Shown piece after piece: positions 11,829 through 64,000 of a stretch of 64,000 nucleotides of DNA. The stretch is from Synechococcus sp. NOUM97013 (lineage in GTDB: Bacteria > Cyanobacteriota > Cyanobacteriia > PCC-6307 > Cyanobiaceae), in contig NZ_CP047941.1 in NCBI RefSeq assembly GCF_014279815.1, forward strand, positions 1,426,001-1,490,000, given 5' to 3'. A program made the translations under genes and the position numbers. The notes below the pieces were generated by a model. It saw only the letters and a program-made list of their open reading frames with translations, was not told where the DNA came from and ran no database searches. Positions within the stretch are counted from its first letter, which is position 1, and every line of letters starts with the position of its first letter.

Positions 11829-12568
11829 CCGTTGCCGTCCGCGCCGATTCGATCAGCAAAAGCTTCCAGCAGGGGCAACGCGCCCTGGATGCCGTGACCC
11901 TCGAGGTGCAACACGGCGAAGTGCTGGTGGTGATGGGTCCATCGGGGTCCGGCAAAAGCACCTTGATCCGCACCTTCAACGGCCTGGAGGCGATCGATGG
12001 CGGACAGCTCGAAGTGGTGGGGCTCAGCCTGGATGCAGACCAAGATGAACGCCAGATCCGGCGCATCCGCCGGCGTGTGGGCATGGTGTTTCAGCAGTTC
12101 AATCTCTTCCCGCATCTGACGATCCTCGACAACATCACCCTGGCGCCTAGACGGGTGAACCAAGTGCCCCGGATCGATGCCGAAGAGCGTGCTCACGGCC
12201 TTCTAGCCCAGATGGGAATCGCCGATCAGGCGACTAAATTCCCCGCCCAACTCAGCGGTGGCCAACAACAACGGGTGGCGATCGCCAGAGCCCTGGCGAT
12301 GGACCCAGAGCTGATGCTGTTCGATGAGCCCACCAGCGCCCTCGACCCGGAACGGGTCAAGGAAGTGCTCGATGCGATGCGTCAGCTGGCATCCGACGGC
12401 ATGACGATGGTGGTCGTGACCCATGAACTGGGATTCGCCCGTGAGGTGGCCGACCGGGTGTTGTTTATGGATGCCGGCCGTGTGGTCGAGCTCAGCGATG
12501 CCAACAGCTTCTTCACGCAAGCCAAGGAAGAACGCAGCCGGCGCTTCCTCAACCAGATGGACCATTGA
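11825..12568 (+). CDS. Amino acid ABC transporter ATP-binding protein (AapP/GlnQ-like)
   Basis: A 247-aa ATPase that powers the importer. Walker A is GPSGSGKST (about residues 38-46), the Q-loop [11 protein letters not shown] is near 96, the signature is [16 protein letters not shown] and Walker B is [12 protein letters not shown]; the H-loop is [15 protein letters not shown]. All catalytic elements are intact. In Anabaena a similar ATPase (BgtA) is shared among several amino acid importers. It closes the operon started at 8303. Confidence 0.93.
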
Positions 12569-12850
12569 ACAACCTGCGTCTTCAATCCTCAACAATCGAC
12601 CGCGACGATGTCGTGACGGGCTCTACTACTGCCCCTAAGGCTCGAAACACGCAAACAGTCCCTGAAGAAGTCATGGACTGGACCGCCGTCCAATGAGATC
12701 GACCCAATGGTGTCCACCTGGTGGAGAGACCGTGTGTCGTTTCTGATCAAGGAAGGTCGTCAAAGAGATGCTGCAGCACTTTTGCTGGAGTTCTGCTTTC
12801 CTAGAAGTCGAGCGATTGAGCTCTCAGCCCATCCACACCCGGACTAGGCC

Positions 12851-13357
12851 ATGGACCAAAGACAACAGGTCCAGCAGCTCTGCGAAGACCACGCTGAAGC
12901 GCTACAGCAACTCGCTCGCGACGTGGCCAAGCGACAGCAATGGGACCTGAATCTGCCCGTCGCCGTGATCGATGCCCGCACCGAGCGGCGATCGTTCCAC
13001 GTCACTGGGGTCGGCAGCGTCGGCAATGTGGTGCGGGTCTCCACGACCATTGATCACCCTTTGATGCAGCAGCTTTTCGCGTTGGTGCAATCGAGCAGCG
13101 ATGACGCTGCCGTGGACACCATGCGCAACAATCCGGACATAGGCGAGGAGTTCGCGACCATCTTTGAGATGTATCGCGACGAACGCCGCGGTGGTGCCCC
13201 ACTCTGGAGCGCTACGGACGCAGCCTCATTCGTGGTGAAGTCCAAGGAGGCTTATGACGACCGCGAGCTGGCCATCGTTGCTCTACTCCCCGGTGATCCC
13301 CATGCTGTGGTGACCTTCGGCGTTCCGCTGAGCTACTACGGCGCCGAAAACGCCTGA
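12851..13357 (+). CDS. Conserved hypothetical protein
   Basis: A 168-aa soluble acidic protein with an N-terminal helical segment (QQVQQLCEDHAEALQQLARDVAKR) partly quoted here only as QLARDVAKRQQWDLNLPVAV, then an alpha/beta part. No signal peptide, no membrane segment and no motif that I recognise. It stands alone after a 280-bp non-coding gap that contains the palindrome TCCACCTGGTGGA (12713-12725), possibly a regulator site. The 3' end overlaps the converging small gene by 22 bp. Confidence 0.65.
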   Translation: MDQRQQVQQLCEDHAEALQQLARDVAKRQQWDLNLPVAVIDARTERRSFHVTGVGSVGNVVRVSTTIDHPLMQQLFALVQSSSDDAAVDTMRNNPDIGEEFATIFEMYRDERRGGAPLWSATDAASFVVKSKEAYDDRELAIVALLPGDPHAVVTFGVPLSYYGAENA

Positions 13358-13554
13358 TTGATCCGCAGACGGTCTAAGGCCTGTTCCGCGGCAATCAATT
13401 CCCGTTCGGTCTGCAGCCAGCATTCATTGCCGAGCGGCAGGGTGGCCACCTGATCCGCCAATTCGAACTGAAGCAACTGGCAACGCTCCGAAAGGGCATC
13501 ACTGAGTTGAAGCAAATGCTGCTGAATCAGGCAGCAGGGAGCGGCGACACCCAA
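13336..13554 (-). CDS. Small helical protein, unknown function
   Basis: A 72-aa protein predicted to be mostly alpha-helical (QLSDALSERCQLLQFELADQ and ECWLQTERELIAAEQALDRL). The start is a TTG supported by an unusually good ribosome binding site, GGAGGAG, five bases upstream. No family recognised. It is convergent with, and overlaps the last 22 bp of, the gene at 12851. Confidence 0.5.
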   Translation of the reverse strand: MGVAAPCCLIQQHLLQLSDALSERCQLLQFELADQVATLPLGNECWLQTERELIAAEQALDRLRINQAFSAP

Positions 13555-13635
13555 ACCAGCTCCTCCAACAAGGACGATTACAACTTTGGCACATTCCCTA
13601 GGTTTTTCTAAACTGATCGTCCCGGAAGGTCTGCA

Positions 13636-14559
13636 GTGCTGAACCTCCTCTGGGAGATGGGTCCCTGCCTGATCGTGGGCGCCTTGATCGGTCGCTGGCG
13701 ACCGCAGTGGATTGCGCCTCTGGCGACACCACTCGTGCGTTTCGGGGTGCCGGTGAGCCTGATGGGCCTATTGCTGCATGGCGGCCTGAACGGCTCGCTG
13801 CTGGGCATGGCGATGCTGGCCGTCACCGTGATTGCGGTCATGCTCACCCTGCTGCGCTTGGCGACACCCTTCGCGGCGGCCCTCTCCCATCCCGATCTGC
13901 AGCTAGGCAGCTGCATCGGAAACACGGCGTACTTCGGCGTCCCCGCTGCCCTGGCACTGCTACCGGCTGAGGCCTTGCCGGTCAGCATCGGCTACGACTT
14001 CGGCGCCACCCTTTTGGCCTGGGGGCTTGGCCCTCTCTGGCTCACCCGCAAGCAAGCATCCAATGAACAAGACCGCAGGTGGCAAAGGCTGATCGGTCAC
14101 CTGAGTGCCAGCCCAGCCACCCGCGGCCTGCTCGGCGCGTTGATCGTGATGGCCACCCCTTGGCACCAGGCGATCAGCGAGGCACTGTGGCTGCCCTCAA
14201 GGGCTGTGATCGTGCTGGCCTTGGCCGTGGTGGGCATGCGCCTGGGAAGCATTGCCTCACGAAATGCTCCGCGCCTCGACGTGAGCCTCACCACGCCGCT
14301 GATCTGCAAACTGCTGCTATTTCCGGCGCTGATGCTGATGGTCAGCCTGGCGCTTCCACTGCCAGGCGTTGCGCGCCAGGCGCTTGTGCTTCAGGCCGCC
14401 GCTCCAACGGCAATTTCGGTGTTGCTCATGGCGGAGTCCGAGCAGCTGAACGCGGCAGCATCGGCGCAACTGATCTTGCGCAGCACCCTGCTGGCGTTAA
14501 TCAGCGTGCCGCTCTGGAGCCTGCTGCTTCGTCCGCTTGGCGGAACACCCGGAATGTGA
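13636..14559 (+). CDS. AEC-family (auxin efflux carrier-like) transporter
   Basis: A 307-aa membrane protein of about ten helices. The N-terminal pattern GPCLIVGALIGRWRPQ, the VRFGVPVSLMGLLL segment and the discontinuous-helix motif GNTAYFGVPAALALL near residue 95 match bacterial members of the auxin efflux carrier family, which move organic anions. The start is a GTG at 13636. The C-terminal end is covered on the other strand by the last 59 bp of the AlkB-like gene. Confidence 0.75.
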   Translation: MLNLLWEMGPCLIVGALIGRWRPQWIAPLATPLVRFGVPVSLMGLLLHGGLNGSLLGMAMLAVTVIAVMLTLLRLATPFAAALSHPDLQLGSCIGNTAYFGVPAALALLPAEALPVSIGYDFGATLLAWGLGPLWLTRKQASNEQDRRWQRLIGHLSASPATRGLLGALIVMATPWHQAISEALWLPSRAVIVLALAVVGMRLGSIASRNAPRLDVSLTTPLICKLLLFPALMLMVSLALPLPGVARQALVLQAAAPTAISVLLMAESEQLNAAASAQLILRSTLLALISVPLWSLLLRPLGGTPGM

Positions 14560-15115
14560 GATTCAAACGCGGTTCACGCACCCGCTTACGAACCGGCAAC
14601 CCATGCATCCACTGCTGCTGGCAGCGGCAATCCATCAGCAGCAGATCGCCATCGGCCAGAGGAAGATCGTGGCGACGGCCACTGATGCGATGTCGAAACT
14701 GCAGATCACGGGTTGCGCCGAGCGATAAGGACGCAATCGGAAAGGCGTCATCAATTTCAGGCTCATCATCCGCATGCCAGCCCATGCGGTCTTCACCGTC
14801 GCGATAGAGATTGAACAGACAACCGTTGAAGGGAGCGGAACAGCGCTGACTCACTTGCTCCAGCAGGGGCTGAAACCATGCTGGCCAGCCTTCACCACGA
14901 TGAACCGCTCCGCTGTAGCGATAGGCCACATCGTGATCAGCCAGAAAAGCTGTTAGCCGGGGCACCCGATGCCAACGCCCGTACACCCGCACCTGCGGCT
15001 GATCCCACTGGATCTGCTGCACGCAACGATCCATCCATTCACGGCTGGTGGAGGGGCTCAGCCAGGTGCGCGCATGCGTCCAGTTGATGGATTCAGGAGC
15101 GTCGTCATCGAGCAT
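14501..15115 (-). CDS. alkB: AlkB-like 2-oxoglutarate/Fe(II) dioxygenase
   Basis: A 204-aa protein of the AlkB family, which repairs alkylated bases by oxidative demethylation. Key residues are visible: the iron-binding H-x-D in MGWHADDEPEI, the distal His in QQWMHGLPVRK, and the 2-oxoglutarate-binding Arg residues in PRLNLTFRVF. The substrate lid region has FNGCLFNLYRDGED. The ATG at 15115 (MLDDDAPESINWT) was chosen over an upstream in-frame start at 15268 because the longer form would overlap the divergent gene at 15225. The 3' end overlaps the AEC transporter gene by 59 bp. Confidence 0.85.
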   Translation of the reverse strand: MLDDDAPESINWTHARTWLSPSTSREWMDRCVQQIQWDQPQVRVYGRWHRVPRLTAFLADHDVAYRYSGAVHRGEGWPAWFQPLLEQVSQRCSAPFNGCLFNLYRDGEDRMGWHADDEPEIDDAFPIASLSLGATRDLQFRHRISGRRHDLPLADGDLLLMDCRCQQQWMHGLPVRKRVREPRLNLTFRVFRQADEAAGSRAAR

Positions 15116-32884: not shown

Positions 32885-33112
32885 ATGCCTGACGAGCAAT
32901 TTCAAGCCTTTCTCAAAACAGCACAATCCGACCCAAGCCTCCAAAGGGCACTGCGAGAAGCAACCAGCAGCGACGAGGTGATCACACTGGCCCAGGAAGC
33001 TGGCTTCACGATTCAAGCTGATTTCACGACAACGCCATCACCTTTGTCCGACGAAGAGCTTGAAGGCATTGATGGTGGCAACTGCGTGACAGCATCATGG
33101 TTCAAGATATAG
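32885..33112 (+). CDS. Nif11-leader peptide precursor (RiPP), short core
   Basis: A 75-aa protein with the Nif11-type leader: MPDEQFQAFLKTAQSDPSLQ, then a VITLAQEAGFTIQA segment and the acidic LSDEELEGIDGG that ends in a double-Gly cleavage site (residues 64-65). The core would be NCVTASWFKI, with one Cys, one Thr and one Ser. By family knowledge such leaders direct prochlorosin-type lanthipeptides or related modified peptides to a synthetase and a peptidase-containing exporter, none of which is in this window. A second precursor is at 48581. Confidence 0.75.
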   Translation: MPDEQFQAFLKTAQSDPSLQRALREATSSDEVITLAQEAGFTIQADFTTTPSPLSDEELEGIDGGNCVTASWFKI

Positions 33113-52825: not shown

Positions 52826-52975
52826 GCCCAATCCAGGGGAAATGACCTGAGCTTCGGTGGCACGGGCAAACAAGACATCCCTCGAATGAGGGAGACATCA
52901 CCCCCAACACCCCACTCGTTTGGGTGATGCGAATTCCAAACAACCGACAAAGAATGAACAGACCAAAATGCAGCC

Positions 52976-55900
52976 ATGCCCACGCGCCTGATCACACCCA
53001 GCCAGCTGTCGCTGTTCAGCATCAGCCCCGTGATTGGTGCCTGGTGGGAGGAGCTGCAGGCGCAGAAGCTGTTTGAAGGCAGCAAGCCAGCGGTGAGTGA
53101 GCTCGATCAGCAGCTGTTTGCCGATGGCCTGCGCCACGAGCAGGTGCTGCTCACCAAGTTGGAAAAAGCAGGCCACAGCATTGCCCGGCTGCCCGGCAAA
53201 CAAACCGACGCCGACTACGCCGCCACCCGTGAAGCGATGGCCCAAGGAGTGGAGTTCATCCACCAGGCCTCGCTCTGCAACGACGAAATGCGCGGCAGTG
53301 CCGACCTGCTCAAGCGCATTGATCGCCCCTCGTTGCTGGGGGAGTGGAGCTACATCCCGATCGAGTGCAAGCTCGCCAGCAAGCCGAAAACCACCTTCCT
53401 GGTGCAGGCCTCGGCCTACTGCGAACTGCTCACCCCAATGCTGGGGCATCTCCCCGATCAGTTCGAGCTCTACCTGGGCGGCGGCAAGTTTCAGCCCTAT
53501 GGCACCGATCAGTTCTGGGCTTGGTACCAATTACTGAGGCAGCGCTACCGCCGGTTCCGCGAAGGCTTCGATCCAGCGGTAATTCCTGAGGATGCACCGG
53601 GAGATCACGGCAGCTGGTCGACATTCATCGAGCAACGGCTCGAGGAGGCCCGCGATCTGATGCTGGTGGCGGGCATGCGCCAGAGCCAGCGCCAGAAGCT
53701 GCGCGCTTCTGGCATCAGCACGATGGAAGATCTCGCCGCTGTTCCGGCTGGCACCGCCATCGCGGGCCTGACTGGAGAAGCCCTGCATGAGCTGCGCCAG
53801 CAGGCCGAACTCCAGCTGCAGCCATTGGATGCTGATGGCCGACCGGCCTATCGCCTGCGGCCTATCGAATCAGGCAAAGGCCTGGCGGCTCTGCCGGCGG
53901 CTGATGCCGGAGACATCTGGTTCGACATGGAAGGCATCCATGACCCGGTGGGCGGCAGCAAACTCGAATACCTCTTCGGCGCCTGCTACCGCAACACCCC
54001 AGAGGGGGAACCGTTGTTCAAAGCGTTCTGGGCCCACAGCGAAGCGGAGGAAAAACGCGCCTTCGAGGGATGGGTGGATTGGGTGGAAGAGCGGCGCCGG
54101 CAGTTCCCAGGCCTGCGGATCTATCACTACGCCGCCTACGAGAAAACAGCGATGCGCCGCCTGGCACAGCAGCACGCCACTCGCGAAGCCGAGATCGATG
54201 GGTGGCTGCGCGGCGAACTGCTGGTGGACCTGCTGCCAATCGTGACCAGCTCGATCGTGCTGGGCGAGCCCAGCTACTCGATCAAGAAGGTGGAATACCT
54301 TTATATGGATGCCCGCCAGGCGGGGGTGACCAATGCCGGTGATTCCGTGGTGGCCTACCTGCACTGGCAGAGCTCCGGTGAACCCGCCATCCCAGGCGAT
54401 GCGCCAAATGCCAGCCCGAAGCTGCAGGCGATTGAGGACTACAACCGCGAAGACTGCGAGAGCACCGTCTTCCTGCACGACTGGCTGCTCAAGCTCAGGC
54501 GTGAGCAAGGCCTGCCGGAGCAACCGCTGCAGCTCACCACAGACGAAGAGCAGGAAGCGCGGGAGGCCTATCCCCTCGAACTGCTCAGCCAAAGGCTGCT
54601 TGATGAACTCCCCGACCCACTCACGGACCCTGATGCAATCGGGCCACGGGGCCTGAGCTGGCGGGCCCAACAACTGCTAGCCCAGTTGCTGCCCTTCCAT
54701 CATCGCGAAGCCAAGGTGGGCTGGTGGGCCTACTTCGATCGGAGGAACAAAGCGCAGCTCAGCCCCGATGCACTGATCGATGACGGCGAAGCCATTGCCG
54801 CTGCTGAGTGGACGGGGGTGGAGGAACGCCCCAGCGCCCGCACCGGCGCCGACATCCACCACTTCCGTTTTGATCCCAGCCAGCCGCTGAAGCTGCATGG
54901 CGGCGAAGGCGACAAGCGCCTGCAACTGGAGCTACCCGATACGGGCCTGAAGCTGGATGTGGATGCACTTGATGCCGAGCAGGGGCGGGTGAGCCTGAAG
55001 CTGCCCTGGAGCAAACGCGATCAACGCATAGCCAATGGTGACGGCGACGGCATCCCCAAGGGCCCCACCAGCCTGATCAAGGTGCCGGCCGACATCAGCA
55101 AATCGATCAGAGCAAGCCTGGAAGAACAGGCTGAAGCCTGGATCGATCGCAACCAACGGCTCCCAGCTGCGATCCAGCAACTGCTGGAACGCCAACCGCT
55201 GCCCGCACTCAAAGCGCTCAACGACGAACTCAAGGGCGATGCCAACCGGGTGAGTGCACTGATAACGGACTTTCTCGCCAGCCACAGCGGCATCACCCTG
55301 GCCTTGCAGGGGCCACCGGGGACGGGTAAATCCACCGTCACTAGCCAGGTGATCGCGCAGCTGGCCCAGCATGGAAAGCGGATTGCGATCAGCTCCAACA
55401 GCCACGCCGCCATCAACAACCTGCTCAAAAAAGCCAAACGCACCTGCGCGGACGCTGGGGTGAGCGGCCAGGTGGTGAAGTGCAGCAACTCCAAAGAAGA
55501 GGCGATGGCCGATGCAGGCATCGCTGTGATGAAGCCAGGCCAGTTAGATGAGAGCTCAGCTGTGGTGGGCGGCACCACCTGGATGTTCTGCAGGGAAGAG
55601 CTCGCTGATCAATTCGATCTGCTGGTGGTGGATGAAGCCGGGCAGATGTCGCTCGCCAATCTGCTGGTGATGGCGCGCTGCGCCCGCTCAATCCTCGTGG
55701 TGGGCGATCAACAGCAACTGGCCCAGCCCTCCCAGGCCGATCACCATGGCGACTCGGGGCAGAGCTGCCTGGAGTTTTGGATGCAAGGGGAAGCCGTGGT
55801 GCCCGACGATCGCGGGGTGTTCCTCCCCACCAGCTGGCGGATGGAGCCAAGCCTCACGGCGATGGTGAGCGAGCTCTTCTACGAAAGCCGTCTGCAAGCC

Positions 55901-56449
55901 AACCCAGGGAATTGCACAAACTGCATCACCTGGCGCACGGCCTGCCAGGGCAGTGATGGCTCGCTATACCCAGGTCAAGGACTGGTGTTTGAAGCGGTGG
56001 AGCACAGCGGCAGAAGCGTGCATGCCCCAGAGGAGATCGATCGAATTGAGCAGCTGGTGGATGCACTGCTGGGCAGCCGTTACGCCATTTCCCGCGGCAA
56101 CCGCACAGAAGAAGGCGTGCTTGATGCCAACACCATCCTGGTGACAGCGCCATACAACTTGCAGGTGAACCGTCTGCAGCAACGGCTGCATGGCCGGGCA
56201 CGGGTTGGCACAGTGGACAAGTTTCAAGGGCAGGAGGCCCCGGTTGCGATTCACTCGCTTACAGCGAGCAAAGGTGATGACGCCCCGCGCGGTGTTGGCT
56301 TTCTGCTGGAGCCCAACCGCCTGAATGTGGCGATCAGCCGGGCGCAATGCCTTTCGATCGTGGTGGGCTCGCCCGGCCTGGCCAGCGGCGTTGCCAACAC
56401 GGTGGCGGATGCCGAACAGATCAATCGGTTGTGTGAGGTAATGGGCTGA
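52976..56449 (+). CDS. TM0106-type RecB-like nuclease fused to a DNA2/UPF1-like helicase
   Basis: A 1157-aa protein. Residues about 1-290 are a RecB-like PD-(D/E)xK nuclease region (SYIPIECKLASKPKTTFLVQ holds the catalytic Glu and Lys), 290-540 contain an RNase H-like domain (DIWFDMEGIHDPVGG, YNREDCESTVFLHDWLL), and the C-terminal half is a superfamily 1 helicase: Walker A GPPGTGKSTVTSQ near residue 779, Walker B VVDEAGQMSLANLLV near 883 and terminal LNVAISRAQCLSIVVG. Relatives are found in defence islands. It is the first gene of the operon, with a TGATG overlap into hsdM. Confidence 0.85.
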   Translation: MPTRLITPSQLSLFSISPVIGAWWEELQAQKLFEGSKPAVSELDQQLFADGLRHEQVLLTKLEKAGHSIARLPGKQTDADYAATREAMAQGVEFIHQASLCNDEMRGSADLLKRIDRPSLLGEWSYIPIECKLASKPKTTFLVQASAYCELLTPMLGHLPDQFELYLGGGKFQPYGTDQFWAWYQLLRQRYRRFREGFDPAVIPEDAPGDHGSWSTFIEQRLEEARDLMLVAGMRQSQRQKLRASGISTMEDLAAVPAGTAIAGLTGEALHELRQQAELQLQPLDADGRPAYRLRPIESGKGLAALPAADAGDIWFDMEGIHDPVGGSKLEYLFGACYRNTPEGEPLFKAFWAHSEAEEKRAFEGWVDWVEERRRQFPGLRIYHYAAYEKTAMRRLAQQHATREAEIDGWLRGELLVDLLPIVTSSIVLGEPSYSIKKVEYLYMDARQAGVTNAGDSVVAYLHWQSSGEPAIPGDAPNASPKLQAIEDYNREDCESTVFLHDWLLKLRREQGLPEQPLQLTTDEEQEAREAYPLELLSQRLLDELPDPLTDPDAIGPRGLSWRAQQLLAQLLPFHHREAKVGWWAYFDRRNKAQLSPDALIDDGEAIAAAEWTGVEERPSARTGADIHHFRFDPSQPLKLHGGEGDKRLQLELPDTGLKLDVDALDAEQGRVSLKLPWSKRDQRIANGDGDGIPKGPTSLIKVPADISKSIRASLEEQAEAWIDRNQRLPAAIQQLLERQPLPALKALNDELKGDANRVSALITDFLASHSGITLALQGPPGTGKSTVTSQVIAQLAQHGKRIAISSNSHAAINNLLKKAKRTCADAGVSGQVVKCSNSKEEAMADAGIAVMKPGQLDESSAVVGGTTWMFCREELADQFDLLVVDEAGQMSLANLLVMARCARSILVVGDQQQLAQPSQADHHGDSGQSCLEFWMQGEAVVPDDRGVFLPTSWRMEPSLTAMVSELFYESRLQANPGNCTNCITWRTACQGSDGSLYPGQGLVFEAVEHSGRSVHAPEEIDRIEQLVDALLGSRYAISRGNRTEEGVLDANTILVTAPYNLQVNRLQQRLHGRARVGTVDKFQGQEAPVAIHSLTASKGDDAPRGVGFLLEPNRLNVAISRAQCLSIVVGSPGLASGVANTVADAEQINRLCEVMG

Positions 56450-58296
56450 TGAGTAATTTTGCAATGTCGACTGATATCAACGAGCTGAGCAATGAAGTTA
56501 TTCCGCTAATCCCAGAGGACGGCAGAAGGGTCAGCAACGAAGAAATACAAGATGCGCTCGAAAAAGCAGCTGGCGAGCCGGTTAGCGATATGACTCTGAA
56601 ACAAATAAAAGCTCGGATCATTGAGCTGGGGATAGCAGAAGCAGCGAAAGGGCCAGGGGGTGGACTCAAAGCAATTGGGGTCGAAACCCCATCCAAGACA
56701 AGCAGCAAAAAGGCAGAGAAAAAGATGGCCACAGCCAAGAGCACCAACTCGGACAAATCACTGGAATCATGGATTTGGGACGCCGCTTGCTCAATCCGTG
56801 GTGCAAAAGATGCGCCGAAATACAAGGACTACATCCTCCCGCTCGTTTTCACAAAGCGGCTCTGCGATGTTTTCGACGACGAACTTGACCGAATCGCGGA
56901 CGAAGTCGGCTCCCGCAAGAAAGCCTTCACCCTGGTCGACGCCGACCCAAAACTCGTCCGCTTCTACCTCCCCTTGAGGCCAGAAGATCCTAATCAGCCG
57001 GTTTGGTCATGCATTCGCAAACTCACTGAACAGATCGGTGAAGGCGTCACATCGCACATGCGAGCAATTGCTAGCTCTAATCCACTGCTCAAGGGCATCA
57101 TCGATCGAATTGACTTCAATGCCACAACCCATGGCCAACGCGACCTAGATGACGATCGCCTCTCCAATCTCATCGAGGCGATCAGCACTAAACGACTCGG
57201 CCTAAAAGACGTCGAGGCCGACATTATCGGCAAGAGTTACGAATACCTCATACGCAAGTTCGCTGAGGGTGGCGGCCAAAGCGCCGGCGAGTTTTACACC
57301 CCTGGGGAGGTCGGGGAAATCATGGCTCGCGTTCTCCTGCCCGAGCCTGGAATGGAGATCTACGACCCAACATGCGGATCTGGCAGCCTCATTATCAAAT
57401 GCGAACTCGCCATGCAGGAGCTTCAAAAAGCCACTGGTGTAAACAACTATGCACCGCTGAAACTCTTCGGCCAGGAGTACGTCCCTGAAACCTGGGCCAT
57501 GGCCAACATGAACATGATCATCCATGACATGGAAGGCCAGATCGAGATCGGCGACACCTTTAAGAACCCCAAGTTCCGAGCCGAGAAGAGCGGCAAACTC
57601 CGCACCTTCGATCGTGTCGTCGCCAATCCCATGTGGAACCAGGACTGGTTCACTGAAACCGACTATGACGCCGACGAACTCAGCCGGTTCCCAGCAGGCG
57701 CGGGCTTCCCCGGCAAATCCTCCGCCGACTGGGGCTGGATCCAGCACATGCTCGCCAGCCTCGATGAGCAGGGCCGGGCCGCCGTCGTCCTCGACACCGG
57801 GGCCGCCTCACGCGGCTCGGGCAATGCCGGCACCAACAAGGAAAAAACAGTCCGCCAGTGGTTCGTCGACCACGACCTCATTGAGAGTGTTCTTTACCTA
57901 CCAGAGAACCTCTTTTACAACACCCCCGCCCCTGGCATCGTCCTCTTCCTCAATAGGGATAAGCCCAAGAACAGGCAGGGGCAGATTTTCCTGGTCAACG
58001 CCAGCCAGATCTTCGAGAAGGGCGACCCCAAGAACTACATCCCTGAGGCAGGCATCAATCGCATCACAGCCACCCTCATCGAGTGGAAGGAAGAGGAAAA
58101 ACTCAGCCGCATCGTCGACCTCGAAGAGCTCAAGACAAACGACTACAACATCTCCCCAAGCCGCTACATCCACACAGGCGACGCCGAAACCTACCGGCCA
58201 ATCGGGGAAATCGTCGCTGAGCTCGAGGCTATCGAGGCGGAAGCCAAGGAAACCGACAAAGCCTTGCGGGAGATTCTGGAGCAGATCGGGATATGA
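56449..58296 (+). CDS. hsdM: Type I restriction-modification methyltransferase subunit
   Basis: A 615-aa adenine methyltransferase. The core has SLESWIWDAACSIRGAKDAP, then FYTPGEVGEIMARVLLPEPG, the SAM motif DPTCGSGSLIIKCELAM (about residues 305-320) and the catalytic motif read as VVANPMWNQDWF rather than the classic NPPY/F. Residues 1-90 form an extra N-terminal domain (VSNEEIQDALEKAAGEPVSD and KQIKARIIELGIAEAAKGPG) resembling a winged helix, joined by a Lys-rich linker. With HsdS it methylates the host site. Confidence 0.9.
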   Translation: MSNFAMSTDINELSNEVIPLIPEDGRRVSNEEIQDALEKAAGEPVSDMTLKQIKARIIELGIAEAAKGPGGGLKAIGVETPSKTSSKKAEKKMATAKSTNSDKSLESWIWDAACSIRGAKDAPKYKDYILPLVFTKRLCDVFDDELDRIADEVGSRKKAFTLVDADPKLVRFYLPLRPEDPNQPVWSCIRKLTEQIGEGVTSHMRAIASSNPLLKGIIDRIDFNATTHGQRDLDDDRLSNLIEAISTKRLGLKDVEADIIGKSYEYLIRKFAEGGGQSAGEFYTPGEVGEIMARVLLPEPGMEIYDPTCGSGSLIIKCELAMQELQKATGVNNYAPLKLFGQEYVPETWAMANMNMIIHDMEGQIEIGDTFKNPKFRAEKSGKLRTFDRVVANPMWNQDWFTETDYDADELSRFPAGAGFPGKSSADWGWIQHMLASLDEQGRAAVVLDTGAASRGSGNAGTNKEKTVRQWFVDHDLIESVLYLPENLFYNTPAPGIVLFLNRDKPKNRQGQIFLVNASQIFEKGDPKNYIPEAGINRITATLIEWKEEEKLSRIVDLEELKTNDYNISPSRYIHTGDAETYRPIGEIVAELEAIEAEAKETDKALREILEQIGI

Positions 58297-59579
58297 ACGA
58301 ATGGCCAGATTTCCAGCTTCCTGAGGATTGGACCCTCGTTCGGATAGACGAGCTTGCCACTACATTGAAGGCTGGCGGAACTCCTAGTAGAAAGAACAAG
58401 GATTACTTCGGCGGAGAGATCCCTTTCGTCCTGATTGACGATATGACAAGCAGCGGCATCTATTTAAAGTCGACTAAAGAAACTTTGACGCAAGAAGGCC
58501 TGAACTCCTGCAGCGCATGGGTAGTTCCTAAAAACACAGTCCTTTTGTCGATGTATGCGACGATCGGAGCGACGGTGATAACGACGTTTCCGGTCGCCAC
58601 AAATCAGGCAATCCTCGCAATAATCCCTCGAGAGGACTGCGACAGAGAATATCTCTCCTTCTGCTTGCAGGCACACAAGTCGCATTTGGCTCGTCTAAAC
58701 GTCGAATCAACCCAGAAGAATATCAACAAGGGAATCGTCTCCTCATTCTCTATACCAATCCCGCCACTCCCCGAGCAGAAAAAGATCGCGTACATACTTT
58801 CGACTGTGCAGCAAGCGATCGAAGCCCAGGAACGGATCATTCAGACCACCACCGAGCTCAAAAAGGCTCTCATACACAAGCTCTTCACCGAAGGCCTCCG
58901 CAACGAGCCCCAAAAGCAAACCGAAATCGGCCCCGTGCCAGAGAGCTGGGAAGTGGTGGAATTGGGGTCACTGTTAGCTAAACAGCCTCAAAACGGCCTC
59001 TATAAGCCAAAGAAAGACTATGGCGCAGGTACCCAAATTCTTCGAATCGACGACTTCAGCAATGATGGTGATGTCGTTACCCATGCAGGAAACGTCGTCG
59101 CGTTAGCTCGCACCGAGATCGAATCCTACGGATTAGAAATTGGCGATATTGTCATCAACCGAGTGAACAGCCTCTCTCATTTGGGCAAGACAGCCCTGGT
59201 CGGAAAGATCGACGGCGAGATGGTATTTGAATCGAATATGATGCGGTTCTCGGTCGATAAGTTAAAAGTTCAGAATGAATATGTATTCAAGTTCCTTAAC
59301 TCGCCACTGTGCAAGAAACAGATTATCGGGTCTGCAAAGCGGGCGGTTGCGCAGTCAAGCATCAACCAGGGTGACGTCAAATCGATCCTCGTTCCCAAGC
59401 CTTCGCTTGCGGTGCAAGCTGAGATTGTTGCGGCACTAAATGCCACCGAAGCAAGAACGGCCCACGCGTCTGACAAAACCAAGGTCCTCCGAAACCTCTT
59501 CCGCACCCTCCTCCACGAACTGATGACCGCAAAGACCCGCGTTCATGAACTCGAACTTAGCGAGGAGGCCGTCGCATGA
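58293..59579 (+). CDS. hsdS: Type I restriction-modification specificity subunit
   Basis: A 428-aa protein with two target recognition domains. TRD1 starts LPEDWTLVRIDELATTLKAG and ends with a helical spacer (LPEQKKIAYILSTVQQAIEA); TRD2 starts VPESWEVVELGSLLAKQPQN and ends LAVQAEIVAALNATEARTAH. These symmetric halves each recognise half of a bipartite target. TRDs are often exchanged between strains. Overlaps both neighbours by 4 bp (ATGA). Confidence 0.9.
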   Translation: MNEWPDFQLPEDWTLVRIDELATTLKAGGTPSRKNKDYFGGEIPFVLIDDMTSSGIYLKSTKETLTQEGLNSCSAWVVPKNTVLLSMYATIGATVITTFPVATNQAILAIIPREDCDREYLSFCLQAHKSHLARLNVESTQKNINKGIVSSFSIPIPPLPEQKKIAYILSTVQQAIEAQERIIQTTTELKKALIHKLFTEGLRNEPQKQTEIGPVPESWEVVELGSLLAKQPQNGLYKPKKDYGAGTQILRIDDFSNDGDVVTHAGNVVALARTEIESYGLEIGDIVINRVNSLSHLGKTALVGKIDGEMVFESNMMRFSVDKLKVQNEYVFKFLNSPLCKKQIIGSAKRAVAQSSINQGDVKSILVPKPSLAVQAEIVAALNATEARTAHASDKTKVLRNLFRTLLHELMTAKTRVHELELSEEAVA

Positions 59580-59917
59580 GTTTGCTGAACATGAGCGAAA
59601 AACCGGCGTCAAAGAAATTTCTTGGAATCGGCTGCCTCTATGTTCTGAATCTCTCAGACCGAATATTCAGTGTCTTCGCCCAAGAAGCCGCAAGTTTCGA
59701 GATTCAGGCTGACGATTGTACGACTCACGGGACGTCGAAAGAGAAGAAGTTCCGTGCCTTTTTGAACGTCGAATCTAATTACCTTGTTGGGAGTCTGCTC
59801 AACGGATTAATCGGAGAGAATAATCAGGTTCATGGCAAAGTTACTGCATTAACAGACCCCCGTAAGGCAAAAGTAAGTATTAACGATTTAGACGCACACC
59901 TTGTTTCAAAACGATAG
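59576..59917 (+). CDS. Orphan 113-aa protein inside the type I operon
   Basis: A soluble protein (MSLLNMSEKPASKKFLGIGC, then LNLSDRIFSVFAQEAASFEI) with KEKKFRAFLNVESNYLVGSL in the middle. It is translationally coupled to hsdS (ATGA) and ends 9 bp before hsdR. No family recognised and no catalytic motif seen. Its base composition is more AT-rich than hsdR. It may be an accessory, inhibitor or regulator of the restriction complex; this is inference from position only. Confidence 0.6.
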   Translation: MSLLNMSEKPASKKFLGIGCLYVLNLSDRIFSVFAQEAASFEIQADDCTTHGTSKEKKFRAFLNVESNYLVGSLLNGLIGENNQVHGKVTALTDPRKAKVSINDLDAHLVSKR

Positions 59918-59926
59918 AAGTTGACT

Positions 59927-62851
59927 ATGCCAACTCCCGGAGAACACAAAACTGTCCAAGCCCGGATCCTCGAATACGCCGAGGCCACCGGTTGGTCGAT
60001 TGTGTCCCGCGAGGAAGCCGAGCAGCGGCGTGGCTTTGAGACCAACCTCCCTCCTGCCGAACGCGCCAAAGGCTGCTCTCTCTTTTTCGACAACCTGCTT
60101 GTCGAAAAGGTGCGGGAATTTAACCCCCGCTACAGCGACGGCAAGGGCGCATTGCTCGGGGAGTTTCAACATCTCCATAACAATATCTACGGCAATCAAG
60201 AATTCGTTGAATACCTGCGAAACCATGGGAAGTTCTTCGATCACGAAGAAAACCGCGAGCGCGACCTGATCCTGATCGATTACGACGATCCGAAGAACAA
60301 CGTCTACGAAGTCACTGAGGAGTGGGCCTATGACAACGGCCACTACGGCACACGGGAGGATGTGGTTTTTCTCATCAACGGCATCCCTGTGCTGGTTATC
60401 GAATGCAAGAACGCCAGCAAGGATGAGGCAATCGCTCTCGGTGTGGACCAGATCCGTCGTTACCACCGCGAGACGCCCGAGCTCTTTGTCCCCCAGCAGC
60501 TCTTCACCGCCACAGATGCCATCGGCTTCTCCTACGGGGTTACATGGAACACGGTGCGGAGAAATATTTTCAACTGGAAAAACAAGGAAGTCGGCAACCT
60601 GGAGGCCAAAGTAAAGAGCTTCTGCGCCATCCCTCAGCTGCTCGCCTTCCTGAAGGATTACATCGTCTTCGCCGAGAAAGACGAGGAACTGAACAAATAC
60701 ATCCTTCGTCAGCACCAGACCGGCGCGGTTGATGCCGCCATCGTCCGTGCCTTGCAGCCAGAACGCACCCGCGGCCTCGTCTGGCATACCCAGGGCAGTG
60801 GCAAGACCTTCACCATGATCAAAACGGCGGAGAGACTGTTCCGAGAGAAGGCGGCCGACAAGCCCACCGTTCTCCTAATGATCGACCGGAACGAGCTGGA
60901 GGATCAGATGCTCAAAAACCTCGCCGCGCTGGGCCTAGGAAATCTGGAGCACGCCAGCAGCATCGCCAAGCTCAACCAGCTCCTGAAAGACGACTACCGA
61001 GGCATCGTGGTGTCGATGATCCACAAGTTCCGCGACATGCCAGCGGATCTCAACACGCGCTCAAATATCTACGTATTGATCGATGAAGCCCATCGCACCA
61101 CTGGCGGCGACCTCGGCAACTTCCTTATGGCCGGCCTGCCTAACGCCACCTTCCTCGGCTTCACTGGCACCCCGGTGGACAAAACCACCTACGGCAAGGG
61201 CACCTTCAAGACCTTCGGCTGCGAAGACGACAAGGGCTACCTGCACAAGTATTCCATCGCCGACAGCATCGAGGACGGCACCACCCTGCCGCTCTACTAC
61301 CAGCTAGCCCCCAACGAAATGCTCGTTCCCCACGAGACGCTCGATGAGGAGTTCCTCTCCCTCGCCGAGGCCGAGGGCGTTGCCGACATCGAGGAGCTGA
61401 ATAAGATCCTCGAGCGAGCGGTGAACCTCAAGAATTTCCTCAAGGGCAAAGAGCGCATCCAAAAGGTGGCGCAGTTCGTCGCCCAGCACTACCGCGAGAA
61501 CGTCGAGCCACTTGGCTACAAGGCCTTCCTCGTCGGCGTCGACCGCGAAGCCTGCGCCCACTACAAGCACGCCCTCGATCAGGTCCTTCCGCCTGAGTAT
61601 TCCGAGGTCGTCTACACGGGCAGCAACAACGACTCAGCCCTGCTCAAAGAATTCCACCTCGATCCAAAGAAGGAGCGGCAGATCCGCAAGAGCTTCTGCA
61701 AGCTCGACCAGCAGCCCAAGATCCTGATCGTCACCGAGAAACTCCTCACCGGCTTCGACGCGCCTGTGCTCTACGCGATGTATCTCGACAAGCCGATGCG
61801 CGACCACACCCTGCTCCAGGCGATCGCCCGGGTGAACCGCCCTTACGAGAACGAGGCCCAGGAGATGGTGAAGCCTCACGGATTTGTACTCGATTTCGTT
61901 GGCATCTTCGACAAGCTCGAGAAAGCCCTCGCCTTCGATAGCGAGGAAATCAATGCCATCGTTAAAAACCTCAAGCTGCTGATGGTGCTGTTCCAGAACA
62001 AGATGGAACAGAAAGCGCCCGAGTATCTCGCACTCATCGAGCAGAACTTCAACGACAAGGACGTCGACACCCTCATCGAGCACTTCCGTGACCCTGAACG
62101 TCGAAAGGAGTTTTTCAGGGAGTACAAGGCGATTGAAATGCTCTACGAGATCATCTCCCCCGACGCCTTTCTGCGCCCGTTCCTAGATGATTTCGCTTCG
62201 CTTTCTGCGATTTACTCCATTGTTCGGAAGGCCTACACGAACACAATCACAGTGGATCGTGAGTTTCAACGAAAAACCAATGCACTTGTGCAGGAGCACA
62301 TCAGCAGCCAATCCTTCAGCAACCCATTGGAGCCAGTGCTGATCAACAGTGAAACTATTGAACTGATCAAAGCCCAACAGGGGGGAGGCGGCTCCAAGGT
62401 GATCAACCTGGTGAAGAGCATCGAGAAATTTGCAGAAGAGAACAGCGACGATCCCTTCTTGATCGCAATGGCCGAACGGGCCAGGCTTGTGCAAGAGAGC
62501 TTTGAGCAACGGCAGACCTCCACCTCCGAGGCCCTCGAAGCACTGTTGCAAGAGCTTGAAAAGAACGAAACCCGCAAGCATGAGCAAGCGGAGAAGGGCT
62601 TCGATGAGCTCACCTTTTTCGTCTATCGCACCCTCCTTGATGCCAAGGTTAACAACCCCGAGGCCGTGAGCATCAAGATCAAGGCCGCTTTCCTATCCTT
62701 GCCTAACTGGAAGCGAAGTGAAAACTCTCTTCGAGAGCTGAGGAAGCAGATCACCTTTGCAATCTATGCCGAATGCGATGAACTGGATCAAGTCACACCG
62801 ATCGTTGATGAGCTTTTCACCCTGCTAGAGAAGGCGGATCGCATCGGATGA
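59927..62851 (+). CDS. hsdR: Type I restriction-modification endonuclease subunit
   Basis: A 974-aa motor and nuclease. The N-terminal nuclease has RED-X13-ECK (D145, E159 and K161; segment INGIPVLVIECKNASKDEA), and the SF2 helicase shows Walker A TQGSGKTFTMIKT (288-300), DEAHRTTGGDLGNF (from 386), FTGTPVDKTTYGKG and motif VI-like LLQAIARVNRPYENEAQEMV. All key motifs are intact. The ATG at 59927 (MPTPGEHKTVQARIL) was chosen over a TTG two codons upstream. Confidence 0.93.
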   Translation: MPTPGEHKTVQARILEYAEATGWSIVSREEAEQRRGFETNLPPAERAKGCSLFFDNLLVEKVREFNPRYSDGKGALLGEFQHLHNNIYGNQEFVEYLRNHGKFFDHEENRERDLILIDYDDPKNNVYEVTEEWAYDNGHYGTREDVVFLINGIPVLVIECKNASKDEAIALGVDQIRRYHRETPELFVPQQLFTATDAIGFSYGVTWNTVRRNIFNWKNKEVGNLEAKVKSFCAIPQLLAFLKDYIVFAEKDEELNKYILRQHQTGAVDAAIVRALQPERTRGLVWHTQGSGKTFTMIKTAERLFREKAADKPTVLLMIDRNELEDQMLKNLAALGLGNLEHASSIAKLNQLLKDDYRGIVVSMIHKFRDMPADLNTRSNIYVLIDEAHRTTGGDLGNFLMAGLPNATFLGFTGTPVDKTTYGKGTFKTFGCEDDKGYLHKYSIADSIEDGTTLPLYYQLAPNEMLVPHETLDEEFLSLAEAEGVADIEELNKILERAVNLKNFLKGKERIQKVAQFVAQHYRENVEPLGYKAFLVGVDREACAHYKHALDQVLPPEYSEVVYTGSNNDSALLKEFHLDPKKERQIRKSFCKLDQQPKILIVTEKLLTGFDAPVLYAMYLDKPMRDHTLLQAIARVNRPYENEAQEMVKPHGFVLDFVGIFDKLEKALAFDSEEINAIVKNLKLLMVLFQNKMEQKAPEYLALIEQNFNDKDVDTLIEHFRDPERRKEFFREYKAIEMLYEIISPDAFLRPFLDDFASLSAIYSIVRKAYTNTITVDREFQRKTNALVQEHISSQSFSNPLEPVLINSETIELIKAQQGGGGSKVINLVKSIEKFAEENSDDPFLIAMAERARLVQESFEQRQTSTSEALEALLQELEKNETRKHEQAEKGFDELTFFVYRTLLDAKVNNPEAVSIKIKAAFLSLPNWKRSENSLRELRKQITFAIYAECDELDQVTPIVDELFTLLEKADRIG

Positions 62852-63195
62852 CAACAGCCACCAAAGCAGCTTTCAAATCAAGGGTTCACGAATGGGCTCA
62901 ACAGCTTGAGGTGAATGTGGTGTGGATCGGCATGCGCCCGATGCGAAACAAGTGGGCCTCCTGCTCCACCAATGGACATCTCAACTTCAGCATCGACCTG
63001 CTCAACCTCGACCGTTCCCTTTGGGACTACGTGATCGTCCATGAACTGCTCCACTTCAGCGTTCCCAACCACGGGCGGCTCTGGAAGAGTTTGATGCGTG
63101 CTCATCTGGGTGATTGGGAACAAGCGGAGCAGGAGCTCAAACGCATCGCCAGCGAAACAATCACACCTAATCAAAGATTGAACAACGACCGATGA
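62848..63195 (+). CDS. YgjP-like zinc metallopeptidase (DUF45/M48-like)
   Basis: A 115-aa protein with the zinc motif VIVHELLHFSVPNHGRLW, where HELLH plus the downstream His of NHG form the usual ligand set, preceded by MRNKWASCSTNGHLNFSIDL. It matches the YgjP-like/DUF45 metallopeptidase family, which is often linked to type I restriction operons. The protein is short compared with the usual 200-plus residues, so only the peptidase core is present. Overlaps both neighbours by 4 bp. Confidence 0.8.
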   Translation: MTTATKAAFKSRVHEWAQQLEVNVVWIGMRPMRNKWASCSTNGHLNFSIDLLNLDRSLWDYVIVHELLHFSVPNHGRLWKSLMRAHLGDWEQAEQELKRIASETITPNQRLNNDR

Positions 63196-64000
63196 AGCCC
63201 AGCCGCCCATTCGCGTTACGCCTATTTGTTCCTTCTGGCCAACCAGAAGGCATGCGCATCGTCGAAAAGACGAACTGGAGCGGAATTGGCTTCGTCATAC
63301 CCCGCTCCCAACTGAAAGAGTTCACCCAAAGGCCAGAAGCCAGCCGTCCAGGCGTCTATCTACTATCAGGGCCAGGGCCTGAAGGAGGGTCTGACCGTGT
63401 ATATGTCGGTGAAGCTGATCCTCTTGGCCGCCGTTTGGAACAGCATCAAGCAAAAGAATTCTGGACTACAGCTTTTGCATTCACATCGAAAGACGGTTAC
63501 CTCAACAAAGCGCATGCCCAGCATCTTGAAGCTCAACTAATTCAACTTGCTGAAAAGGCAAAGCGATGTCGATTAGAAAATATTGTTCAAGGCCGCTCCA
63601 TCTCCCTGGCAGAGATGGATCTAGCTGAGGCTAACGGCTTCCTCGAAGAGCTCCTACTTTGTTGCCCAGTGCTTGGGTTTCGCGCTTTCGAACAGCCTGT
63701 ACGTAAGACACCAACATCAGACCAGAAGACATTTCATCTGAGTGGGCCAGATGCCTCTGGGAAAGGCTTTGAGTCGCCTGGTGGCTTCACCGTCCTTAAG
63801 GGTGCTGAAGCCAGGTCTGAGTTCGTTGAATCCACACCAGCAAATGTGATTGCAGCAAGATCTGAACTGGAGAACCAAGGCGTTTTCATACAGTCAAAAG
63901 GCCATTTAAGCCTTGCTCAGGATTACGAGTTCAACTCACCATCCCAAGCTGCTGTGATGCTTTTAGCCCGCTCAGCAAATGGACGGACCAATTGGAAAGA
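63192..64000 (+). CDS. GIY-YIG nuclease-like protein with DUF4357 domain (cut by window end)
   Basis: A frame of at least 269 codons, open at the window edge. After an N-terminal beta part comes the GIY-YIG-like core: RPGVYLLSGPGP with VYVGEADPLGRRLEQHQ, where Tyr, Tyr, Arg and the downstream Glu (EAQLIQLAEKAKRC) take the family positions. The C-terminal part (SPSQAAVMLLARSANGRTNW) matches DUF4357, a domain found with restriction systems. The start overlaps the YgjP-like stop by 4 bp (ATGA). Confidence 0.78.
   Translation, partial: MKPSRPFALRLFVPSGQPEGMRIVEKTNWSGIGFVIPRSQLKEFTQRPEASRPGVYLLSGPGPEGGSDRVYVGEADPLGRRLEQHQAKEFWTTAFAFTSKDGYLNKAHAQHLEAQLIQLAEKAKRCRLENIVQGRSISLAEMDLAEANGFLEELLLCCPVLGFRAFEQPVRKTPTSDQKTFHLSGPDASGKGFESPGGFTVLKGAEARSEFVESTPANVIAARSELENQGVFIQSKGHLSLAQDYEFNSPSQAAVMLLARSANGRTNWK

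What the first reader, a model, noticed from the sequence alone, without database searches (positions are those of the whole stretch)
52976..64000. One coupled defence operon joining a TM0106-type nuclease-helicase to a full type I RM system and two accessory nuclease/peptidase genes
Seen: seven plus-strand genes with 1-bp or 4-bp stop/start overlaps (TGATG at 56449; ATGA at 58293, 59576, 62848 and 63192) and only a 9-bp gap before hsdR. Known: TM0106/RecB-helicase proteins, HsdMSR, YgjP-like peptidases and GIY-YIG/DUF4357 proteins occur in defence islands, mostly separately. Inference: the tight coupling suggests one transcript and perhaps one composite system in which the nuclease-helicase acts with, or downstream of, the type I complex.
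Basis: partly seen in the sequence, partly recalled or inferred. Interest (0 to 1): 0.75.

Follow-up and report, generated by a model that had tools for sequence, protein, structure and literature searches.

The report
Nuclease-helicase heading interchangeable phage-defence operons
A DNA-processing enzyme gene in an ocean cyanobacterium sits directly in front of a restriction system, but in related strains the same gene sits in front of quite different phage-defence systems, so it looks like a shared, reusable part and not a dedicated piece of this one system.

Summary
Seven plus-strand genes (TM0106/RecB nuclease-helicase "TM", hsdM, hsdS, orf113, hsdR, YgjP-like, GIY-YIG/DUF4357) are packed with 1- or 4-base overlaps and one short gap; the last ends 73 bases past the window. 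A dedicated TM + type I composite is only partly supported. In relatives the same TM gene overlaps five other kinds of operon: a different type I RM, type III RM with SNF2, ARMADA-like, Hma-like and SbcD-like. Against the 91%-identical relative, homology ends at TM's last sense codon and resumes at the convergent rmuC, so the restriction genes occupy an exchangeable slot. TM is a recombination mosaic. Eight other family genomes carry this hsdR at 74% identity or more; none is TM-positive. In G266 the slot holds a type I system without TM. TM also stands alone and is under purifying selection. Best reading: a Dna2-like, probably general-purpose end-processing enzyme at the head of swappable defence cargo. 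Its biochemical role is inferred, not shown.

The parts
52876..52895 (.). palindrome CATCCCTCGAATGAGGGAGA in the promoter region of TM, 100 bases before its ATG; a near-copy lies upstream of the convergent rmuC at the far end
52976..56449 (+). TM0106-family (COG2251) RecB-like nuclease + RNase H-like exonuclease + SF1 (UPF1/Dna2-type) helicase, 1157 aa; head gene
56435..56439 (+). GAGGT inside the last codons of TM, 9 bases before the hsdM ATG: a likely built-in ribosome-binding site (GAGGTGATGGGCTGATG in L058 and L093, one base different in the remnants L065 and L137)
   Evidence: function inferred from sequence
56449..58296 (+). hsdM, N6-adenine methyltransferase subunit with about 100 extra N-terminal residues; first cargo gene
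58293..59579 (+). hsdS, two Methylase_S stretches
59576..59917 (+). orf113, no family match; not found at E 1e-4 in the homologous type I loci
59921..62851 (+). hsdR (TTG start, or ATG at 59927)
62848..63195 (+). YgjP-like metallopeptidase (HELLH), a conserved neighbour of this hsdR family
63192..64000 (+). GIY-YIG/DUF4357 protein (PADLOC candidate PDC-S14); continues to window-equivalent 64073

Best explanation
The segment is one occupant of a defence slot. A conserved nuclease-helicase gene (TM) is the left border and head gene, a convergent rmuC the right border, and a whole defence operon sits between them as exchangeable cargo; here the cargo is a type I RM system with its own accessory YgjP and GIY genes. 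SHOWN: adjacency and overlap; several unrelated cargoes behind the same TM; homology confined to TM and to rmuC with unrelated DNA between; mosaic TM genes, one of which shares both its 3' part and its cargo with another strain; TM under purifying selection with nuclease and helicase motifs kept; type I relatives, and one slot, without TM. INFERRED: cargo is swapped by homologous recombination within the shared border genes; TM is a Dna2-like enzyme that unwinds and degrades DNA ends, and so is useful next to many systems that cut or stall phage DNA, without being a subunit of the type I complex.
For: Cargoes that overlap an intact TM by 1 or 4 bases (9 of 48 intact TM genes with downstream DNA): own type I; L034 another type I (M, M, S, R); L059 SNF2 + type III; L058 and L093 ARMADA-like (DruE/YprA-like, BrxH/DrmD-like, Eco57I/PglX-like); L094 and L095 Hma-like; L040 and L063 two SbcD-like operons. 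Own against L034: homologous at L002:520-4447 (TM stop codon 4448-4450) and 12145-14619 (rmuC onward), no match of 150 bases or more between. L093 TM is 88-91% like own over the first 500 codons and 90-97% like L058 after that, and carries L058's cargo (DruE 99%); AU tests reject a shared tree. dN/dS 0.08-0.25 in all 55 pairs. In the genus, 6 of 7 TM-positive genomes (E 1e-30, one a remnant) of 31 also have rmuC (Fisher p 6e-5); in the family 13 of 30 rmuC-positive genomes are among the 52 TM-positive of 400, p 1.6e-5. Plasmid homologues lie by type I + McrBC, BREX/TrlF, SbcCD-like, ubiquitin-like and DUF4011 genes. Best Foldseek match is Dna2.
Against: 39 of 48 intact TM genes do not overlap the next gene and 32 of 48 have none of the labelled defence genes downstream, so 'head of a defence operon' is a property of the marine clade and scattered others, not of the family. 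Eight of the nine overlap cases come from one related group, so they are not independent; over all 48 the overlap rate (9 of 48) is not clearly above the control (61 of 473). 17 of 30 rmuC-positive family genomes are not TM-positive. Fisher tests treat related genomes as independent. Two of six SH tests do not reject. No experiment shows any activity of TM; the model has pTM 0.50 and TM-score 0.23 to Dna2. Shared hotspots can produce adjacency without any functional link.
Confidence: 0.7

Rival explanations
1. Dedicated composite system: TM acts with or after this type I complex as one machine.
For: One-base overlap with hsdM and a likely ribosome-binding site inside TM; type I genes beside TM again in L034 and, with YgjP, on the Acaryochloris plasmid.
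Against: Own hsdR family without TM in 8 of 8 other family genomes; the slot with type I but no TM in G266; TM with many other partners or alone.
Confidence: 0.08
2. Pure hitchhiking: TM is an independent, self-sufficient defence or repair gene, and the defence cargo lands behind it only because the site is a hotspot.
For: TM without coupled cargo and under strong selection (L060/L061 pair, dN/dS 0.078; freshwater strains); truncated TM remnants left in front of the YprA-like cargo in G014 and G101; cargo without TM in G266.
Against: Partner genes are repeatedly joined by overlap, with TM tails that go with the cargo; defence neighbours recur on plasmids of other phyla, both before and after TM.
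Confidence: 0.35
3. TM is mainly a DNA-repair or replication enzyme, with defence association secondary.
For: Fold and sequence nearest to Dna2/UPF1-type helicases; on one plasmid near SOS-peptidase and error-prone polymerase genes; a ligase gene set in front of TM in Prochlorococcus and an actinobacterium.
Against: Patchy: 52 of 400 family genomes, remnants included; on plasmids; often in defence neighbourhoods.
Confidence: 0.15

Closest known systems
COG2251 / TIGR03491 (TM0106) RecB-like nuclease with AAA tandem
   Same: PD-(D/E)XK-like domain, RNase H-like exonuclease domain and tandem AAA domains; a 2014 RNase H-like superfamily survey (PMC3985635, four passages read) reports this make-up for COG2251
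   Different: the passages read give no tested function and no genomic partners; here it heads interchangeable defence operons
Dna2 nuclease-helicase
   Same: RecB-type nuclease followed by an SF1 helicase; best Foldseek match and a strong profile match
   Different: has an RNase H-like exonuclease domain between them; no cysteine among the invariant alignment columns, so no sign of Dna2's Fe-S cluster (the Fe-S feature is recalled)
Type I restriction-modification (hsdMSR)
   Same: all three subunits with their domains
   Different: an orphan gene between S and R, YgjP and PDC-S14 accessory genes behind R, nuclease-helicase in front
ARMADA (YprA-helicase systems; PMC12458937, abstract and one section read)
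   Same: cargo of L058/L093 resembles its type I gene order: YprA-like, BrxHII-like, PglX-like (L058 with a GmrSD gene in between)
   Different: here it is only an alternative occupant of the slot; the paper's main text has no hit for RecB, Cas4, Dna2, UPF1 or RmuC
Defence hotspots with fixed border genes
   Same: variable defence cargo between conserved genes
   Different: the border gene is itself a probable defence enzyme, overlaps the cargo's first gene and shows recombination inside it

Membership tests
Type I RM system | HsdM, HsdS (two recognition domains) and HsdR with N-terminal and helicase domains | tested here: met
TM0106/COG2251 family | TIGR03491 above curated cut-off plus tandem AAA domains | tested here: met
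   208 bits against 97.45; AAA_11 and AAA_12
TM0106/COG2251 family | intact catalytic motifs | tested here: met
   D110, K132, Q144, Y148, D317, E319, D418, D493, K785, E887, Q890 in 50 of 50 proteins; E130 E or D in 50; R1122 in 49 with 1 gap
Dna2 | nuclease-then-helicase order and fold | tested here: inconclusive
   best Foldseek match over 1093 columns, but pTM 0.50 and TM-score 0.23
Dna2 | Fe-S cluster cysteines (recalled feature) | tested here: not met
   no cysteine among the invariant columns
Mokosh (MkoA) | match to MkoA beyond the helicase | tested here: not met
   best stretches lie in the helicase, 858-1155 and 859-1132
Dedicated TM + type I composite | TM present with homologous type I loci | tested here: not met
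   0 of 8 other family genomes with hsdR of 74% identity or more are TM-positive
Dedicated TM + type I composite | single transcript and joint phenotype | not testable with these tools
   needs RNA mapping and phage assays
PDC-S14 (last gene) | PADLOC model match | tested here: met
   4.5e-86

The most novel reading that the evidence does not exclude
TM is a general-purpose defence processing enzyme that works with whatever DNA-targeting system is plugged in behind it; its 3' end, with a built-in ribosome-binding site, serves as a docking point, and recombination inside TM and rmuC lets a cell exchange one defence system for another while keeping the enzyme.
Probability: 0.3. Interest if true: 0.72.

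Novelty: new variant of a known kind. Interest (0 to 1): 0.52.

Why it matters
Defence genes are known to cluster, but how whole systems are exchanged cleanly, and whether shared enzymes serve several systems, is open. Here is a case with sharp homology breaks: border enzyme, cargo, border gene, with mosaic border genes showing exchange. It gives a testable pair of claims: that one nuclease-helicase boosts several unrelated systems, and that cargo exchange occurs by ordinary recombination in the border genes. It also corrects a reading that would have filed a new composite type I system.

Tried and rejected
A composite unique to type I: rejected on the TM-free hsdR relatives and on the many other partners.

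Packing as evidence by itself: weak, since 61 of 473 control pairs overlap in the same way.

The palindrome as a defence-specific operator: not established. Three exact copies in the genome and ten with up to one mismatch, against 0 for the reversed pattern; two of the exact ones lie at the slot's two edges, but other near-copies lie at ordinary places, one just downstream of what looks like dnaB (dnaB is my reading of the sequence). It may be a dispersed repeat.

A tRNA attachment site: none found in L002/L003. Phage carriage: no match at E 1e-20 in the phage collection.

Partner test for HmaC across 400 genomes: the search failed twice and was left, so how often the Hma-like cargo lacks TM is not known.

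Literature: no paper in the library holds 'TM0106' with 'nuclease', or 'TIGR03491'; three hold 'COG2251', of which I read passages of one. Searches for the association in other words showed no report of it in titles and abstract starts. In PMC12458937 I read the abstract and one section, in PMC9122601 passages, in PMC12255303 the abstract and outline. The library omits most subscription journals, so this is not proof that the association is unpublished; I recall, unchecked, that older defence-island surveys list COG2251.

Rows dropped: of 83 neighbourhood loci, 1 without a TM hit and 17 duplicates were removed, leaving 65; 48 of these have TM of at least 1050 aa with 300 or more bases downstream or an unflagged end, and 2 of the 48 had no further gene called. 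Genes were called by my own simple script. Cargo labels come from Pfam/PADLOC scans of representative proteins, not of every neighbour, so 'no labelled defence gene' is an upper limit on solitude. Of 62 plasmid records, 18 regions were read, one per genus among the 40 listed records, leaving out two genera without annotation at the match and Legionella and Piscirickettsia; this is not a random sample.

Full report
WHAT IS THERE. The window is G000:C1:1426001-1490000 of a one-contig 2.55 Mb genome; the closest named relatives of the head gene are Synechococcus records, 91 and 93% identical. From 52976 seven plus-strand genes follow one another with 1- or 4-base overlaps and one short gap. The first encodes a 1157-aa protein with a TM0106/RecB nuclease region, an RNase H-like exonuclease region and an SF1 helicase. 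Then come hsdM, hsdS, an unmatched 113-aa gene, hsdR, a YgjP-like peptidase and a GIY-YIG/DUF4357 protein whose best match is the PADLOC candidate PDC-S14. The last gene ends 73 bases beyond the window, and 60 bases further on rmuC ends on the other strand. No promoter or terminator excess was found, and none of the plus-strand sites lies between genes.

SAME GENE, OTHER CARGO. TM homologues were collected from three sets: 35 of 60 relatives with a match at E 0.001, short TM0106 proteins included; 24 loci from genome contigs; and 52 of 400 family genomes at E 1e-30, remnants included. After removing 17 duplicates and one locus without TM, 65 neighbourhoods remained. Of 48 intact TM genes with downstream DNA, 9 overlap the next gene by 1 or 4 bases. 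The nine next genes belong to: the own type I RM; another type I RM with two M genes (L034); SNF2 plus type III RM (L059); a DruE/YprA-like helicase with BrxH/DrmD-like and PglX/Eco57I-like genes (L058, L093), close to the described order of ARMADA type I (PMC12458937, section read), L058 with a GmrSD gene in between; HmaC plus DUF1156 methylase plus an SNF2 helicase (L094, L095; the helicase matches several families better than HmaA); and SbcD-like operons (L040, L063). That is six kinds in all, five besides the own. Others lie close without overlap: a C5-methylase operon (L062, 54 bases), dynamin plus helicase (L107, 144) and Mrr-helicase (L122, 192). Against this, 32 of 48 have none of the labelled defence genes downstream, and several freshwater and Prochlorococcus TM genes stand alone as far as I could tell. 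Over all 48 the overlap rate is not clearly above the 61 of 473 seen in control pairs; the point is the variety of partners, not the packing.

AN EXCHANGEABLE SLOT. Between own and L034 (TM 91% identical) DNA homology covers the upstream gene and TM up to its last sense codon, is absent through the restriction genes, and resumes in the last codons of rmuC. With L040 it ends 7 bases before the stop codon. rmuC lies convergent behind the cargo in own, G322, G025, G027, G140 and G195, and behind a TM without coupled cargo in G013 and G030; a 67-residue rmuC remnant lies there in G209. In the genus, 7 of 31 genomes have rmuC and 6 of these are TM-positive at E 1e-30 (one, G009, only as a remnant); one TM-positive genome (G014) lacks rmuC and one rmuC-positive genome (G003, 80% complete) lacks TM. 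In the family 13 of 30 rmuC-positive genomes are TM-positive, 12 of the 13 on one contig within about 22 kb, two of these (G248, G330) with rmuC upstream on the same strand instead; 17 of 30 are not TM-positive. In G266 the slot, with the same upstream gene (89%) and rmuC (96%), holds a type I RM and a PDC-S02 nuclease but no TM. TM is therefore optional in the slot.

RECOMBINATION INSIDE TM. L093 resembles own/L040/L034 over the first 500 codons (88-91% nucleotide identity to own) and L058/L059/L094 afterwards (86-97%), and its cargo is that of L058. L062 resembles the own group (84-89%) only in about its last 200 codons. Trees of codons 110-450, 560-1000 and 1010-1157 reject each other's topologies by AU test in all six comparisons, most weakly the 560-1000 tree on the tail data (p 0.046); by SH test two of the six are not rejected. 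C-terminal tails go with cargo: near-identical ends in front of the YprA-like helicase (L058, L093, L065, L137), of HmaC (L094, L095) and of SbcD-like genes (L063, L052, L130), though L040 has its own tail. Truncated TM genes remain in front of cargo in G014 (213 codons) and G101 (102 codons), and as an internal deletion in G009.

WHAT BELONGS WITH THE TYPE I SYSTEM. hsdR relatives with at least 74% identity over most of the protein occur in 8 other family genomes (one with an in-frame stop, one split between contigs), none among the 52 TM-positive ones; two more genomes hold short fragments and are also not TM-positive. In the 8 fetched loci hsdM lies upstream in 7 (the eighth contig ends first), YgjP follows hsdR in 7 (the eighth ends inside hsdR), and GIY follows in 4, one as a partial match. 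orf113 was not found, and where the stretch is complete other genes stand between S and R. Likewise the YprA-like helicase of L058 is in 30 of 400 family genomes, but by the coordinates directly behind TM or a TM remnant in only 4 of them (G027, G209, G014, G101).

OTHER PHYLA. The plasmid collection has 62 records with TM-like proteins, 56 covering at least 80% of the query. Eighteen regions were read. Neighbours include, on an Acaryochloris plasmid, hsdM, a PDDEXK nuclease, hsdS, hsdR, SprT/YgjP (30% identical to the own YgjP), McrC, AAA and TM on one strand; BREX genes and TrlF; SbcCD-like pairs; multiubiquitin/ThiF genes, once with rmuC nearby; Abi and DUF4011 genes; and SIR2. A WYL regulator is adjacent or two genes away in 7 of 18. 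Six regions show no clearly recognised defence system near TM, and in two TM is interrupted by an insertion sequence.

WHAT TM DOES. The nuclease and helicase motifs are kept in 50 proteins, and dN/dS is 0.08-0.25 in all 55 pairs, lowest (0.078) in the pair without coupled cargo. The profile matches UPF1, IGHMBP2 and Dna2; the model (mean pLDDT 76, pTM 0.50) finds Dna2 first by Foldseek, at E 3.6e-19 but with low TM-score. A 2014 survey places COG2251 among presumed 3'-5' exonucleases with a PD-(D/E)XK-like domain and frequent AAA tandem (PMC3985635, passages read). A DNA unwinding and degrading enzyme that finishes off ends made or exposed by a neighbouring system is the simplest reading compatible with so many partners. 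It is an inference; a self-sufficient defence enzyme at a hotspot remains a strong rival.

VERDICT. The finding is better described as one state of an exchangeable defence slot headed by a shared nuclease-helicase.

Noticed in passing
window 52876-52895; L002:13622-13641; G000:C1:2048369: Palindrome of the form CATCCCTCNANTGAGGGA, three exact pattern matches in the genome (reversed control 0), two of them at the two edges of the defence slot, and variants 66-100 bases upstream of TM in several relatives; operator or dispersed repeat.
   Followed up: partly
L002:12135-13574 (window-equivalent 64134-65573): rmuC as right border of the slot; PADLOC places it near its DRT-associated RmuC model, and RmuC domains are known from the Shield system (PMC10270631, title and abstract start seen in search listings only).
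   Followed up: partly
L002:13737-14636: 299-aa gene beyond rmuC matches defence candidate PDC-S11 at 4e-85, so the island continues to the right.
   Followed up: no
L055:4909-7570, L125, L127, L053: Conserved three-gene set (199 aa, 231 aa, ATP-dependent DNA ligase) directly before TM in Prochlorococcus-type genomes and an actinobacterial bin: possibly a repair operon.
   Followed up: no
L044, L047, L041, L063, L116, L130; L056: SbcD-like + SMC-like (often + HIRAN) genes recur with TM, in L056 before TM and in another phylum; maybe a distinct TM system.
   Followed up: partly
L093:2153-2302 (oriented); L040:15503-16105: Extra TM fragments beside an intact TM: 50 N-terminal codons upstream in L093, a C-terminal fragment downstream of the cargo in L040.
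   Followed up: no
window 56449-56750: HsdM carries about 100 residues before its HsdM_N domain; their nature was not resolved.
   Followed up: no
window 32885-33112; L002:16372-16972: Small genes that look like Nif11-type leader peptides of natural-product clusters (label recalled from sequence, not searched).
   Followed up: no
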